DNA of 33,753 nucleotides, taken from the NCBI GenBank assembly GCA_015231925.1, contig JADGAQ010000021.1, forward strand, positions 1 to 33,753. The letters are read 5' to 3'. The notes beneath the pieces were generated by a model. It made no database searches, was not told the origin of the DNA, and was given only the letters and a program-made list of their open reading frames with translations. Within the stretch, counting starts at the first letter, position 1, and each line of letters opens with the position of its first letter. Positions 17,312-30,099 of the stretch are shown in pieces. The DNA is from Magnetococcales bacterium. Lineage in GTDB: Bacteria; Pseudomonadota; Magnetococcia; Magnetococcales; JADGAQ01. The translations under genes were made by a program, and so were the position numbers.

Positions 17312-17340
17312 AGCCAAGTTGGGGGATATTTTAATTCTTT

Positions 17341-17510
17341 AGACTTTTAATATGTTATCTTTTAAGTATCAAAAAAAGGAAATGTTCTATCTTTTGACTT
17401 TGTCCTTAAGCGGCTTTCCCCTGGGAGAGGGGTGCTGAACAGATACGAAAAGTCAAAAGACGGAACATTTCCTTTTTTTGATACTTAAAAGACAACACAT
17501 TGAAAGTCAA
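17341..17510. repeat. Large palindromic element (family A), copy 3
   Basis: This is the best-preserved copy. The left arm (17341-17401) and right arm (17448-17508) are about 61 bases each. They are nearly exact reverse complements, with transitions as most differences. Each arm begins and ends with GACTTT or its complement. The roughly 46-base centre contains its own small CCCCT / AGGGG hairpin. It lies between two convergent genes, ending ten bases from the stop of the minus-strand GGDEF gene. Confidence 0.88.
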
Positions 17511-17519
17511 AAGATTTAA

Positions 17520-19424
17520 TCAGGCTTCGCCCTCTTCCCCCTCGTCGCCGCCACCCCTGGAATAGGCGATCACCCGGTTGCGTCCCCCTTCCTTGGCCTG
17601 ATAAAGGGCACTGTCGGCGTGCTTGGCCACTTCCCAGATGCTCTCGCCATTCTGGGGAAAACGGGCCAGCCCGATGGAGAGGGTCTTGCGCAATACCCCT
17701 CCCGAGATGGGAATCTTCAGTTTTTCCACCGCCAGACGGATCTTCTCAGCCATGCGCGGTCCGAAGAAGCCCTCCGTCTCCTGCAGAATGACCATGAACT
17801 CCTCACCACCGTAACGAATGACCAGATCCGAAGAGCGAATCTGATCGGCAATGGCCTTGGACACGGTTTTGAGAACGATGTCGCCCGCTTCGTGGCCAAA
17901 GGTGTCGTTGACCTGTTTGAAATGGTCGATATCCAGCATCAGAATGGTCAGTTGCGAACGGTTGCGCTTGGTGCTGGCCACCAGGGTATCGACGTACTCC
18001 TCCAGGAAGCGTCGGTTGTGCAGACCGGTCATGGGATCCCGCAAGGCCGATTCCCGCAGGGTGTCCATGAGACGGCGGGCTTCGACCACCGAGGCGGACT
18101 CCCTCAGATAGACCTGAACGAAGGGCAGCATGCGTTGCATCAGACTGGCATGAGAGGCCTCGATGAGAAGCTGCACCACGTTGCCCACCGCGCCGGAGTG
18201 GATGACGGGGATGCAAATATGCACCAGATTGAGATCGAGCGGGTTGCGGAACTGGTTGCAGAGATGCGGATGTCCCGTGGAATCGATCATGTGCCCGGTA
18301 CGCTGCGCCCGACACAAATCGGCCTGGAAGAGAATCTCCGGCTGGCACCAGCCACAGGGGGCATCCATCTGCCCGTCCACGACCATGGCCTTCATATGGT
18401 TGTGGGAGGCGGCCACTTCGTAAAGGGTGAACCGCTTGATGCCGAACTGATCGGTGAGGATGCGGGAGAGGCGGGAGTAAACCTCCAGCTTGTTGTGATC
18501 CTCCTCGATGGATTGTTTGAACTGGGAAACCTCGACCAGAATATCGACGATGTCCGTGGTGACGGAGAGCAGATTGGTATTTCCCTCCACCTTGTATTGC
18601 ATCAGCTTGGCAACGTCTTGGGAAATGGTGCCGAGACTCTTCTGTAAATGCCCCATCAGGGTGTTGAGATCCTGGGCAATCTGCCCCACCTCGTCGTGAC
18701 CGCTGTATTCGATGCGTCCGGAGAAGTCCCCGTCGCGCGCCCTGGCCACAACACCCTGCACCCCCTGGGCGGTGGTGACCACGGCGTGGATCTGGCTGCG
18801 AAAGAGCCAGGTGAAGAAGATGGCGAAAAAGGCCACGACCCCCGTCATGGCCAGCATGGTCAACAAGGCCTTGGATTGAATCTGGGCCAGGGAAAGCTTG
18901 ATGGTGATGGCGCCCAACACCGTGCGGTTGGCCACCTGATGGCAGGCCAGACAATTGGGCGTGCCCCGGTTGGAGGCGACGAAGGGAACCGTGCCCCGGA
19001 ACACCGGCGCATCGAACTCATTGGAAAGGGAGAAGGAGGCCTCTCCGGAAAAAAGCACCTCCTGCTCGACATCGTCGATCTTCTGTTCGGCATCCAGACC
19101 CGGACCGAACTGGCGAATGACCTCGGGACCCCGCACCACCCGTGCCTGCAGCAGGCCTTCCACTTCCGCGAGGCGGATGAGAAAGTTTTCCCGATTCTGA
19201 ATGACGCCGTTGATCATGGATTCGGTCAGACTGACCCGTACCACCTCCGCCAGGGAACGGACCTGCTCCTGGGCGGTGGCGATGGAAAACTGGCGGAAGG
19301 AGAAGAGGCTGACGGAGATCAACACCACCATCAAGGCCCCGGAGAGGCCCAGAATCAGCAGAGTTGTCTTGGTCTTGAGGCCGATGTGTTTCAGTTTGGC
19401 AAGCAGGAAACGGGTTTCCGACAC
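17520..19424 (-). CDS. Diguanylate cyclase with periplasmic heme-c (CxxCH) sensor, HAMP, Cys-rich GAF-like and GGDEF domains
   Basis: 634 residues from a GTG at 19424 (GAGG upstream); a further GTG at 19475 would add 17 residues. Two membrane helices (about 19-43 and 186-208) flank a periplasmic domain ending in NCLACHQVANRTVLG. That is a CxxCH motif (C158, C161, H162) expected to bind heme c covalently, as in other sensors of the type with 'TVLGA' after the motif. A HAMP linker (209-261) follows. A cytoplasmic GAF-like region has four cysteines (C357, C360, C371, C389). The C-terminal GGDEF domain has GGEEF at 539-543 and an RSSD inhibitory site at 530-533. It should make c-di-GMP in response to redox, gas or ligand. 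The acidic Gly/Glu-rich tail is unusual. Confidence 0.93.
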   Translation of the reverse strand: MSETRFLLAKLKHIGLKTKTTLLILGLSGALMVVLISVSLFSFRQFSIATAQEQVRSLAEVVRVSLTESMINGVIQNRENFLIRLAEVEGLLQARVVRGPEVIRQFGPGLDAEQKIDDVEQEVLFSGEASFSLSNEFDAPVFRGTVPFVASNRGTPNCLACHQVANRTVLGAITIKLSLAQIQSKALLTMLAMTGVVAFFAIFFTWLFRSQIHAVVTTAQGVQGVVARARDGDFSGRIEYSGHDEVGQIAQDLNTLMGHLQKSLGTISQDVAKLMQYKVEGNTNLLSVTTDIVDILVEVSQFKQSIEEDHNKLEVYSRLSRILTDQFGIKRFTLYEVAASHNHMKAMVVDGQMDAPCGWCQPEILFQADLCRAQRTGHMIDSTGHPHLCNQFRNPLDLNLVHICIPVIHSGAVGNVVQLLIEASHASLMQRMLPFVQVYLRESASVVEARRLMDTLRESALRDPMTGLHNRRFLEEYVDTLVASTKRNRSQLTILMLDIDHFKQVNDTFGHEAGDIVLKTVSKAIADQIRSSDLVIRYGGEEFMVILQETEGFFGPRMAEKIRLAVEKLKIPISGGVLRKTLSIGLARFPQNGESIWEVAKHADSALYQAKEGGRNRVIAYSRGGGDEGEEGEA

Positions 19425-19514
19425 GAGCAGTGCCTCGCGAGGCAGAAGGGTTATCCATCGGGACTGGTGTAACACGGTGCGTCGCGAAAATCAAACGGCA
19501 AACCCATGTTTCAA

Positions 19515-21439: not shown

Positions 21440-21534
21440 CGGGTTTGCGGTAAGTTGTCTTCCGATTGCAGTTAATATGAGTATCCTGTAGGATGAACGA
21501 GATAGGGGTGGCTCCGCTCTCGGGAGGGAAGAAG

Positions 21535-22242
21535 ATGTCCGAATCCGTGACTTTCGATGATGTGTGGAAAATGTTCCAGGAGATGGTGCGCGAGAATCGC
21601 GAGCGCAGTGCCGAGTGGGAGCGGCAGACCCAGGAGACGAGCCGGAAGAACCAGGAGACGGACGATAAAATGGAGGAGACGGCGCACCAGATGAAAGAGA
21701 CGGAGCGTCAGATGAAAGAGACGGACCGTCAGATGAAAGAGACGGAGCGTCAGATGAAAGAGACGGACCGCAAAATGGAGGAGACGGATCGCAAGCTCAA
21801 GGAAAACACTCGTGTGGGGGACAACCTGACGGGAAAGTGGGGTTGGTTTCTGGAGTGGCTGGTAGCTCCCGCCTGCGAGCGGGTTTTCGCCGAGCGGGGT
21901 GTTCCGGTGCATGAGGTACACCAGCGGGTGCGCAAGCGCACCACGGATGGCCGGACTTTGGAAGTGGATATCCTGGTGGTCAACGAGAATACCGTGGTTC
22001 TGGTGGAGGTCAAGAGTTCCCTGGGGGTGCCCGACGTGAGGCGCCACCTGAAGCGTTTGGCCCGGTTCAAGGAGTTTTTTCCCCGTTATGGCGATTGCCG
22101 GGTCATGGGAGCGGTAATCGGCATCGATACGGAGGAACGTGCCGAAGAGTTCGCCCGCAACGAGGGTCTGTTTGTCCTGACCCACTCGGGGGAAGATATA
22201 CGGATCGCCAATCCGGCGGGCTTCGTGCCACGGGTGTGGTGA
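21535..22242 (+). CDS. Coiled-coil PD-(D/E)XK-like protein (DUF3782-type)
   Basis: 235 residues. The first third is a long coiled coil made of seven perfect seven-residue repeats (pattern ETxRxMK). The C-terminal part has a PD-(D/E)XK nuclease-like core: TLEVDILVVNENTVVLVEVKSSLG places D145, E158 and K160 in the D...ExK arrangement. Then GVPDVRRHLKRLARFKEFFP and MGAVIGIDTEERAEEFARNEG follow. This is the architecture of DUF3782-type proteins, often of unknown function in bacteria. Whether it cuts DNA is not shown. The ATG at 21535 follows GGGAGGG; an ATG 42 bases upstream is also in frame. It lies 95 bases after rsgA and before an AAA ATPase, in an interval with signs of insertion. Confidence 0.8.
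   Translation: MSESVTFDDVWKMFQEMVRENRERSAEWERQTQETSRKNQETDDKMEETAHQMKETERQMKETDRQMKETERQMKETDRKMEETDRKLKENTRVGDNLTGKWGWFLEWLVAPACERVFAERGVPVHEVHQRVRKRTTDGRTLEVDILVVNENTVVLVEVKSSLGVPDVRRHLKRLARFKEFFPRYGDCRVMGAVIGIDTEERAEEFARNEGLFVLTHSGEDIRIANPAGFVPRVW
21652..21798 (+). repeat. In-frame 21-bp minisatellite (seven units) encoding coiled-coil heptads
   Basis: Seven consecutive 21-base units (147 bases) in the coiled-coil gene encode QETDDKM, EETAHQM, KETERQM, KETDRQM, KETERQM, KETDRKM and EETDRKL. The centre units alternate in a regular two-unit pattern (ER/DR), which suggests past duplication of pairs. Unit loss or gain would keep the frame and change coiled-coil length by one heptad. Confidence 0.92.
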
Positions 22243-29828: not shown

Positions 29829-29860
29829 GGGAAGTGCGGGTCAAACGGGAATATATTTTT

Positions 29861-30049
29861 TGACTTTCAATATTTTATCTTTTAAGTATCAAAAAAAGGA
29901 AATGTTCTGTCTTTTGACTTTTCAGTCACCATTCATTTAGATCATCCCAGTCAAATGCCTGGCAGTTTTGCTATTGACTCAACATAAAAATTCAAAGAAT
30001 AGAACATTTCCTTTTTTTGATACTTAAAAGATAAAATATTGAACGTCAA
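29861..30049. repeat. Large palindromic element (family A), copy 4
   Basis: Left arm 29861-29922 and right arm 29986-30049 are about 62-base near reverse complements carrying the same core as copy 3 (AAAAAAAGGAAATGTTCT). The 63-base centre is related to that of copy 1. It lies between the convergent DUF47 copy 2 and hemD, after a complete intrinsic terminator, ending 51 bases from the hemD stop. It is therefore not needed to end DUF47 transcription. Confidence 0.88.
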
Positions 30050-30099
30050 CAGACTATAAAAAATAAAGATATTTGATCGAGGGGGGTGCAATTGGTTCA

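What the first reader, a model, noticed from the sequence alone, without database searches (positions are those of the whole stretch)
17520..19424. Diguanylate cyclase with two candidate redox sites
A periplasmic CxxCH (C158, C161, H162) and a cytoplasmic Cys cluster (C357, C360, C371, C389) lie in one polypeptide with a GGEEF domain and RSSD inhibitory site. A heme on one side of the membrane and a metal or disulfide on the other could integrate two redox signals.
Basis: partly seen in the sequence, partly recalled or inferred. Interest (0 to 1): 0.5.

Follow-up and report, generated by a model that had tools for sequence, protein, structure and literature searches.

The report
Heme-and-cysteine two-sided signalling enzyme
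This is a membrane enzyme predicted to make the bacterial messenger c-di-GMP, with a likely heme sensor outside the membrane and a second strictly conserved four-cysteine site inside, and many related bacteria keep both sites, so it may combine chemical signals from both sides of the membrane.

Summary
A minus-strand gene encodes TM, periplasmic domain with CxxCH, TM, HAMP, GAF-fold domain with cysteines, and GGDEF with an RxxD site. The CxxCH is invariant in 31 of 31 order-level proteins and in 81 of 81 rows of a second alignment (50 of its 80 relatives lie outside Magnetococcales). The periplasmic domain is probably a divergent heme-c Cache domain (best Foldseek match GSU0935; profile match to Tll0287-like) with a conserved Met as likely sixth heme ligand. 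The four-cysteine GAF also occurs without the heme domain, so the sites are separate modules. In three genomes of one family a related cyclase lacks the heme domain; beside it, and beside none of 117 other loci, lies a stand-alone Tll0287-like heme-protein gene. Cytochrome c assembly genes are present. Best reading: a heme-c redox/NO-responsive diguanylate cyclase with a cofactor-binding (perhaps Fe-S) GAF domain. Cofactors and signals are untested. New variant of a known kind.

The parts
17520..19475 (-). whole gene, 651 aa with the longer GTG start (634 aa from the GTG at 19424)
   Evidence: start codon not settled; the aligned homologues share sequence from about residue 31 on
19302..19370 (-). 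first transmembrane segment (about residues 36-58)
   Evidence: hydrophobic stretch read from the sequence; boundaries approximate
18861..19304 (-). periplasmic Cache-fold, probable heme-c domain (residues 58-205)
   Evidence: model pLDDT 88; Foldseek best 3b42 GSU0935 E 4.8e-6; VIA Z 10.2 to Tll0287 5b82; hhalign to Tll0287-like set prob 96.2
18939..18953 (-). CxxCH heme attachment motif C175-C178-H179
   Evidence: 31 of 31 and 81 of 81
19215..19217 (-). Met87 on the first periplasmic helix, predicted sixth heme ligand
   Evidence: 81 of 81, 40 of 47 rows of a set with distant heme relatives, own row included; analogy to Met60 of GSU0935 (PMC8396549, passages)
18798..18869 (-). second transmembrane segment (about residues 203-226)
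   Evidence: hydrophobic stretch read from the sequence; boundaries approximate
18642..18752 (-). HAMP domain, Pfam match residues 242-278
18078..18590 (-). GAF-fold domain (residues 296-466)
   Evidence: model pLDDT 79; Foldseek and VIA best rows are GAF domains, Z 14.2 to NifA GAF 8jrc; no Pfam GAF match for the window protein
18213..18347 (-). span of the four invariant cysteines C377, C388, C406, C421
   Evidence: 31 of 31, 81 of 81, 39 of 40; spacing
17574..18047 (-). GGDEF diguanylate cyclase domain (residues 477-634) with GGEEF and RSSD
   Evidence: Pfam E 1.8e-48; site residues invariant in 81 of 81

Best explanation
It is a transmembrane diguanylate cyclase with two cofactor-type input sites. 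Outside, a Cache domain carries a covalent heme c held by His179 and, in one state, by Met87. Met87 lies on the first helix, next to TM1, and the CxxCH lies before the strand and short helix that lead into TM2. The heme would therefore act as a breakable staple between the two transmembrane helices (within one chain, or between the chains of a dimer): reduction favours the Met bond, and oxidation or NO breaks it. The resulting helix shift passes through HAMP to the cytoplasmic GAF domain and sets the activity of the GGDEF dimer. Inside, four cysteines in or near the GAF pocket bind a cofactor, most likely an Fe-S cluster, which would gate or tune the same output. Shown here by computation: the architecture, the conservation, the two folds as predicted models, the independence of the two modules, and a split form with a separate heme-protein gene beside it. 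Inferred: heme ligation, the staple mechanism, the nature of the cysteine site, the signals, and the sign of the response.
For: CxxCH invariant 31/31 and 81/81; Met87 81/81 and 40 of 47 rows that include distant fusions to other outputs, one confirmed as chemotaxis receptor. Periplasmic model: Foldseek ranks 1 and 2 are the heme-c domain GSU0935; Tll0287 Z 10.2, rmsd 3.8, 121 aligned. The CxxCH falls between strands 99-109 and 129-138 of the model, the place that PMC12889525 gives for the heme insert. hhalign against 30 Tll0287-like segments prob 96.2, control with the GAF profile 0.9. GSU0935 uses His144/Met60, with Met bound in the reduced state (PMC8396549, passages). Four Cys in 39 of 40 distant relatives whatever the N-terminus. 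Cytochrome c assembly genes present. Split form: L149, L150, L151 lack the heme domain and have a Tll0287-like gene downstream on the same strand, about 50 to 370 bases away, 3 of 3, against 0 of 80 fused loci, 0 of 12 sCache_2-type loci and 0 of 25 other distant loci. The split rows lie within a set of 33 fused Magnetococcales rows (SH-aLRT 100).
Against: No spectrum, metal analysis or enzyme assay was seen for this protein. Pfam's Tll0287-like model does not match it and matches 9 of 31 members only weakly (best E 0.083). The Foldseek match to 3b42 superposes badly (rmsd 14, TM 0.47-0.53); that structure is a swapped dimer. The top VIA rows are Cache domains without heme (WalK, Z 13.2), and GSU0935 itself has Z 8.0 over 83 residues. 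The hhalign match is partly driven by the CxxCH itself. The GAF model is only fair where three of the four cysteines lie (pLDDT 64-75), and no coordinates were available to measure sulfur distances. The three split loci are one family of genomes, so their linkage may be a single event. Five rows have Phe (three), Val or Thr at the Met87 position and two have a gap. Cytochrom_D1 genes do not track the family in the order (22 of 39 genomes with a full-length match, 2 of 2 with fragments, 5 of 7 without).
Confidence: 0.6

Rival explanations
1. The heme domain senses, but the four cysteines only hold a structural zinc that stabilises the GAF domain. There is one input, not two.
For: Strict four-Cys conservation across different input domains fits a structural site as well as a sensory one. 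The site is kept where the heme domain is absent (15 of 40 distant relatives have no CxxCH, and all 15 keep the four Cys).
Against: The conserved set has no CxxC pair (x10, x17, x14 in the window protein), unlike common zinc ribbons (recalled). No Cys/His swaps were seen at the four positions in 81 rows. Neither point excludes zinc.
Confidence: 0.25
2. The four cysteines work as thiols: disulfides or reaction with peroxide or an oxidised small molecule, as in GAF-fold methionine-R-sulfoxide reductases, without a metal.
For: fRMsr structures are among the fold matches (3mmh, 3ksf), and those enzymes use pocket cysteines (recalled).
Against: Four cysteines kept together in nearly every relative fit a four-ligand site better than a dithiol (inference). 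No sequence match to an fRMsr chain was listed.
Confidence: 0.2
3. The periplasmic heme is an NO sensor rather than a redox sensor. (This overlaps with the best explanation, which leaves the signal open.)
For: A signalling-type sCache_heme protein binds NO with slow dissociation and forms no stable oxy complex (PMC12889525, parts 1-3 of 6 read). The window's genome has Cytochrom_D1 genes, of the nitrite reductase type.
Against: That test protein was predicted to lack an axial side chain, whereas this family keeps Met87. Presence of the family does not follow Cytochrom_D1 genes in the order. GSU0935 and GSU0582 are read as redox sensors by their authors (PMC8396549, passages).
Confidence: 0.35

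Closest known systems
GSU0935 and GSU0582 periplasmic heme-c domains of Geobacter chemotaxis receptors
   Same: Cache/PAS-like fold, CxxCH late in the domain, TM-HAMP linkage; in GSU0935 a Met well before the CxxCH is the distal ligand (His144/Met60; PMC8396549, passages)
   Different: Output is chemotaxis signalling with no four-cysteine GAF domain described there; no sequence match was listed, so the link rests on the predicted model
Tll0287-like (PF11845) / sCache_heme family
   Same: Heme insert between beta3 and beta4, Cache fold, profile similarity; fusions to c-di-GMP enzymes are reported for that family (PMC12889525)
   Different: Not matched by the Pfam model; conserved Met instead of the Cys ligand of Tll0287
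DcrA of Desulfovibrio vulgaris
   Same: Periplasmic heme c plus a second sensor-type domain (PAS) in the cytoplasm in one receptor (PMC8396549, passages)
   Different: Chemotaxis protein; its cytoplasmic PAS domain carries no heme, and no four-Cys set is described in those passages
GSU2622 (HAMP/GAF/HD-GYP protein with a heme-c motif)
   Same: Heme-c motif with HAMP and GAF in a c-di-GMP type protein (PMC8396549, passages)
   Different: HD-GYP output; only an annotation is given there; its cysteines were not compared here
AirS of Staphylococcus aureus
   Same: Histidine kinase whose N-terminal region has a four-cysteine cluster that binds [2Fe-2S] (PMC4601167, passages); that this region is a GAF domain is recalled
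   Different: Spacing Cys-x7-Cys-x-Cys-x17-Cys, kinase output; a heme domain is not mentioned there

Membership tests
GGDEF diguanylate cyclases | GGDEF domain with intact GG(D/E)EF motif | tested here: met
   Pfam E 1.8e-48, GGEEF invariant in 81 of 81
GGDEF diguanylate cyclases | c-di-GMP synthesis in vitro | not testable with these tools
   needs an assay
Tll0287-like / sCache_heme | Pfam PF11845 match over the gathering score | tested here: not met
   no match for the window protein (the four PF11845 matches in its genome lie on other contigs); 9 of 31 members weakly, best E 0.083
Tll0287-like / sCache_heme | Cache fold | tested here: met
   predicted model; Cache chains at Z 8-13, Tll0287 Z 10.2; GSU0935 first
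Tll0287-like / sCache_heme | CxxCH in an insert between beta3 and beta4 | tested here: met
   model strands 99-109 and 129-138, CxxCH at model residues 118-122; motif invariant
Tll0287-like / sCache_heme | covalent heme c | not testable with these tools
   assembly genes present; needs spectroscopy
GAF domains | GAF fold | tested here: met
   predicted model; the best Foldseek and VIA rows are GAF domains
GAF domains | Pfam GAF-family sequence match | tested here: not met
   no GAF model for the window protein at E up to 5; none among the 25 of 32 families shown for 31 members at E up to 1
Fe-S GAF sensors (AirS type) | four cysteines that bind an Fe-S cluster | tested here: inconclusive
   four invariant cysteines, different spacing from AirS, cluster not shown

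The most novel reading that the evidence does not exclude
A widespread proteobacterial diguanylate cyclase family reads redox or gas state on both sides of the inner membrane at once: a Met/His heme-c switch in the periplasm and an undescribed Fe-S-binding four-cysteine GAF domain in the cytoplasm jointly gate c-di-GMP. When the heme domain is lost from the polypeptide, a stand-alone periplasmic heme-c protein encoded next door supplies the signal in trans.
Probability: 0.25. Interest if true: 0.75.

Novelty: new variant of a known kind. Interest (0 to 1): 0.52.

Why it matters
Heme-c Cache sensors were set out as a family in a February 2026 preprint (PMC12889525), and in my reading how their signal crosses the membrane is still open. 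This family links such a domain to a measurable enzyme output and to a second, strictly conserved cysteine site in one protein, and it offers natural variants (fused, split, and cysteine site without heme) as ready controls. If both sites are sensory, it would be a direct case of a bacterium comparing periplasmic and cytoplasmic chemical state to set c-di-GMP, in magnetotactic, Azoarcus/Azonexus-type and Gallionella-type lineages.

Tried and rejected
Rejected: that the CxxC formed by C374 and C377 is the functional motif (C374 is lost in many relatives). Rejected: that the gene belongs to a conserved operon outside its order. With a crude longest-frame gene finder on 80 loci, the largest neighbour cluster covered 18 loci, all Magnetococcales (not identified, possibly an antisense frame), the next 14, all Magnetococcales (its start resembles the window's HpcH/HpaI-type gene); apart from the gene itself and its antisense frame no cluster covered more than 9 of the 50 other loci. 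Rejected as support: a link with Cytochrom_D1 (nitrite-reductase-type) genes within the order: over the cut-off in 22 of 39 genomes with a full-length match, 2 of 2 with fragments (G007, G012), 5 of 7 without. Led nowhere: sequence searches of solved structures with the two domain profiles, plasmid records (one weak Aeromonas place), and papers on cysteine-bearing GAF domains in cyclases (passages of PMC8846402 and PMC8063818 seen gave none).

Not settled: the start codon; the one distant row without C377 (L182) is a 472-aa frame that shows no GGDEF motif and may be broken or frameshifted. The first attempt at extracting homologues took wrong frames for some loci and found none for one; it was replaced. 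My note says 'only 9ish' for C374 among 40 relatives; the table gives 7 of 40. The 80 genome-contig loci are the most similar of 253, so conservation there is conservation among the nearest; the 40 were chosen by me from the list.

Full report
What is there. Order of parts: TM1, periplasmic domain with CxxCH (175-179), TM2, HAMP (Pfam 242-278), a domain that Pfam does not recognise (296-466), and GGDEF (477-634). Transmembrane segments are read from the sequence.

Conservation inside the order. Searching 48 genomes of the order with residues 18-465 gave a full-length match (E below 1e-100) in 39; two more have fragments, G007 and G012. I aligned 31 proteins: own, its paralogue on C279, and 29 of the other 38 genomes. 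C175, C178, H179, C377, C388, C406 and C421 are invariant in 31 of 31; C374 is Cys in 25 of 31.

Conservation outside. A scan of genome contigs with the N-terminal half used two peptide patterns that contain no Cys; 253 places encode relatives and the best 80 were kept. Thirty are Magnetococcales, so they overlap the first set. Fifty are titled Magnetospirillum, Azonexus/Dechloromonas, Azoarcus/Aromatoleum, Gallionella, Sulfuricella and others, nearly all Proteobacteria; one is titled Stygiobacter (Ignavibacteriota), perhaps a binning error. In the 81-row alignment the same seven residues and Met87 are invariant, and C374 is Cys in 75. R547, D550 and GGEEF are invariant too.

Distant relatives. 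A profile of the Cys domain (A6) matched 68 of 398 genomes of the phylum, a profile of the periplasmic domain (A5) 94 of 398. I fetched 40 places from the list, mostly the more distant ones. C377, C388, C406 and C421 are all present in 39 of 40, C374 in 7 of 40. Twenty-five of 40 carry a CxxCH, 15 do not. Of these 15, twelve (L170-L181) share another N-terminus, which in the two scanned with Pfam matches sCache_2/dCache_2, and three (L149-L151) have a very short periplasmic loop. So the four-cysteine domain is a module of its own and does not need the heme domain.

Folds. The Cys domain modelled with 60 sequences has pLDDT 79, and its best matches are GAF domains (Foldseek E 7.9e-6 to 5w10; VIA Z 14.2, rmsd 3.0, 154 aligned with the NifA GAF). 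C377, C388 and C406 lie in the loop-rich stretch between strands 66-71 and 122-131 of the model (pLDDT 64-75), and C421 in the latter strand. In GAF domains this region lines the ligand pocket (recalled). The periplasmic domain has pLDDT 88; Foldseek ranks the heme-c domain GSU0935 first (E 4.8e-6, but rmsd 14 and TM 0.47-0.53; that structure is a swapped dimer), and VIA gives WalK Z 13.2, Tll0287 Z 10.2 and GSU0935 Z 8.0 over 83 residues. The best VIA rows are therefore ordinary Cache domains; the heme-c relation rests on Foldseek, on the place of CxxCH and on the profile match (hhalign prob 96.2, 71 columns, partly driven by the CxxCH itself; GAF control 0.9). Pfam's own Tll0287-like model does not match the window protein.

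Heme ligands. In GSU0935 the heme is held by His144 and, in one of two subunits, Met60, and Met binds the reduced form (PMC8396549, passages seen). Here Met87 is 92 residues before His179, on the first helix of the model. It is Met in 40 of 47 rows of a set with distant heme relatives, own row included; many of these were marked as chemotaxis receptors by a pattern and one (L220) by Pfam. The exceptions are three Phe, one Val, one Thr and two gaps. A His/Met switch is the natural prediction.

Split form. In L149, L150 and L151 (three genomes of one family) the cyclase lacks the periplasmic domain, and a frame of 199-223 aa with CxxCH and a Pfam Tll0287-like match (E 4.3e-24 to 1.2e-25) lies downstream on the same strand, about 50, 250 and 370 bases away. 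The same profile found no stand-alone neighbour of this kind in 80 fused loci, 12 sCache_2-type loci or 25 other distant loci (flanks up to 6 kb in the first set, only 1-2 kb in the others). On a quick tree of 91 rows (22 of the 50 non-Magnetococcales loci used; L154 and L182 dropped) the three split rows are one group inside a supported set with 33 fused Magnetococcales rows (SH-aLRT 100, no bootstrap). The simplest reading is that the heme domain was lost from the polypeptide and a heme protein recruited beside it. This is probably one event.

Assembly and context. Cytochrome c assembly genes are present in the window's genome (CcmF-like and CcmC-like by frame length). The neighbours are ALAD (HemB), a PP2C-type phosphatase, a cyclase-catalytic protein with FHA, an HpcH/HpaI-type lyase and RsgA; no partner is conserved outside the order. 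Cytochrom_D1 genes are in the genome, but their presence across the order does not follow the family.

How it probably works. Heme c bridges the first helix, next to TM1, and the segment before TM2. Reduction locks Met87 onto the iron; oxidation or NO frees it. The shift reaches the GAF and GGDEF dimer through HAMP. The GAF four-cysteine site is the second gate; an Fe-S cluster is my first choice because the four are strictly Cys and contain no conserved CxxC pair, with AirS as a four-cysteine [2Fe-2S] precedent (PMC4601167, passages). Zinc and thiol chemistry remain open. All of this paragraph is inference.

Known and new. sCache_heme fused to c-di-GMP enzymes is already reported in general (PMC12889525, three of six parts read). 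I found no paper on this family or on the four-cysteine GAF domain in the held library (searches; listings and, for some, passages); subscription papers are mostly not held. Hence a new variant of a known kind, with a second module that I did not find described.

Noticed in passing
17331-17519 and 29855-30053: Two copies of a dispersed palindromic repeat (71-nt arms, 90% complementary, 47 nt between at 17331-17519); the same stretch gives 107 matches in the genome, most places counted on both strands, so roughly fifty copies or more; it looks like a MITE-type element.
   Followed up: partly
L149 1483-3878, L150 377-2770, L151 434-2954: Four-cysteine GAF diguanylate cyclases without periplasmic domain, each followed downstream by a Tll0287-like heme-c protein gene; a candidate two-protein sensor.
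   Followed up: yes
L170-L181: A sister group of cyclases in the same order joins a Cache-type domain (sCache_2/dCache_2 in the two scanned) to the same four-cysteine GAF domain and has one more Cys three residues before C388.
   Followed up: partly
L233, L234, L235: Divergent relatives of the same periplasmic heme domain are fused to HD-type (L233 by Pfam HD_5, L234 by its similar sequence) and SpoIIE-type phosphatase outputs.
   Followed up: no
G000, contig C279 2013-3317: The window's genome has a second full-length copy of this cyclase at 56% identity over the N-terminal half, among 45 GGDEF matches.
   Followed up: partly
21493-22242: A 249-aa frame with a repeated E-R-Q-M-K-E-T coiled-coil-like stretch and no Pfam match at E up to 1e-5.
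   Followed up: no
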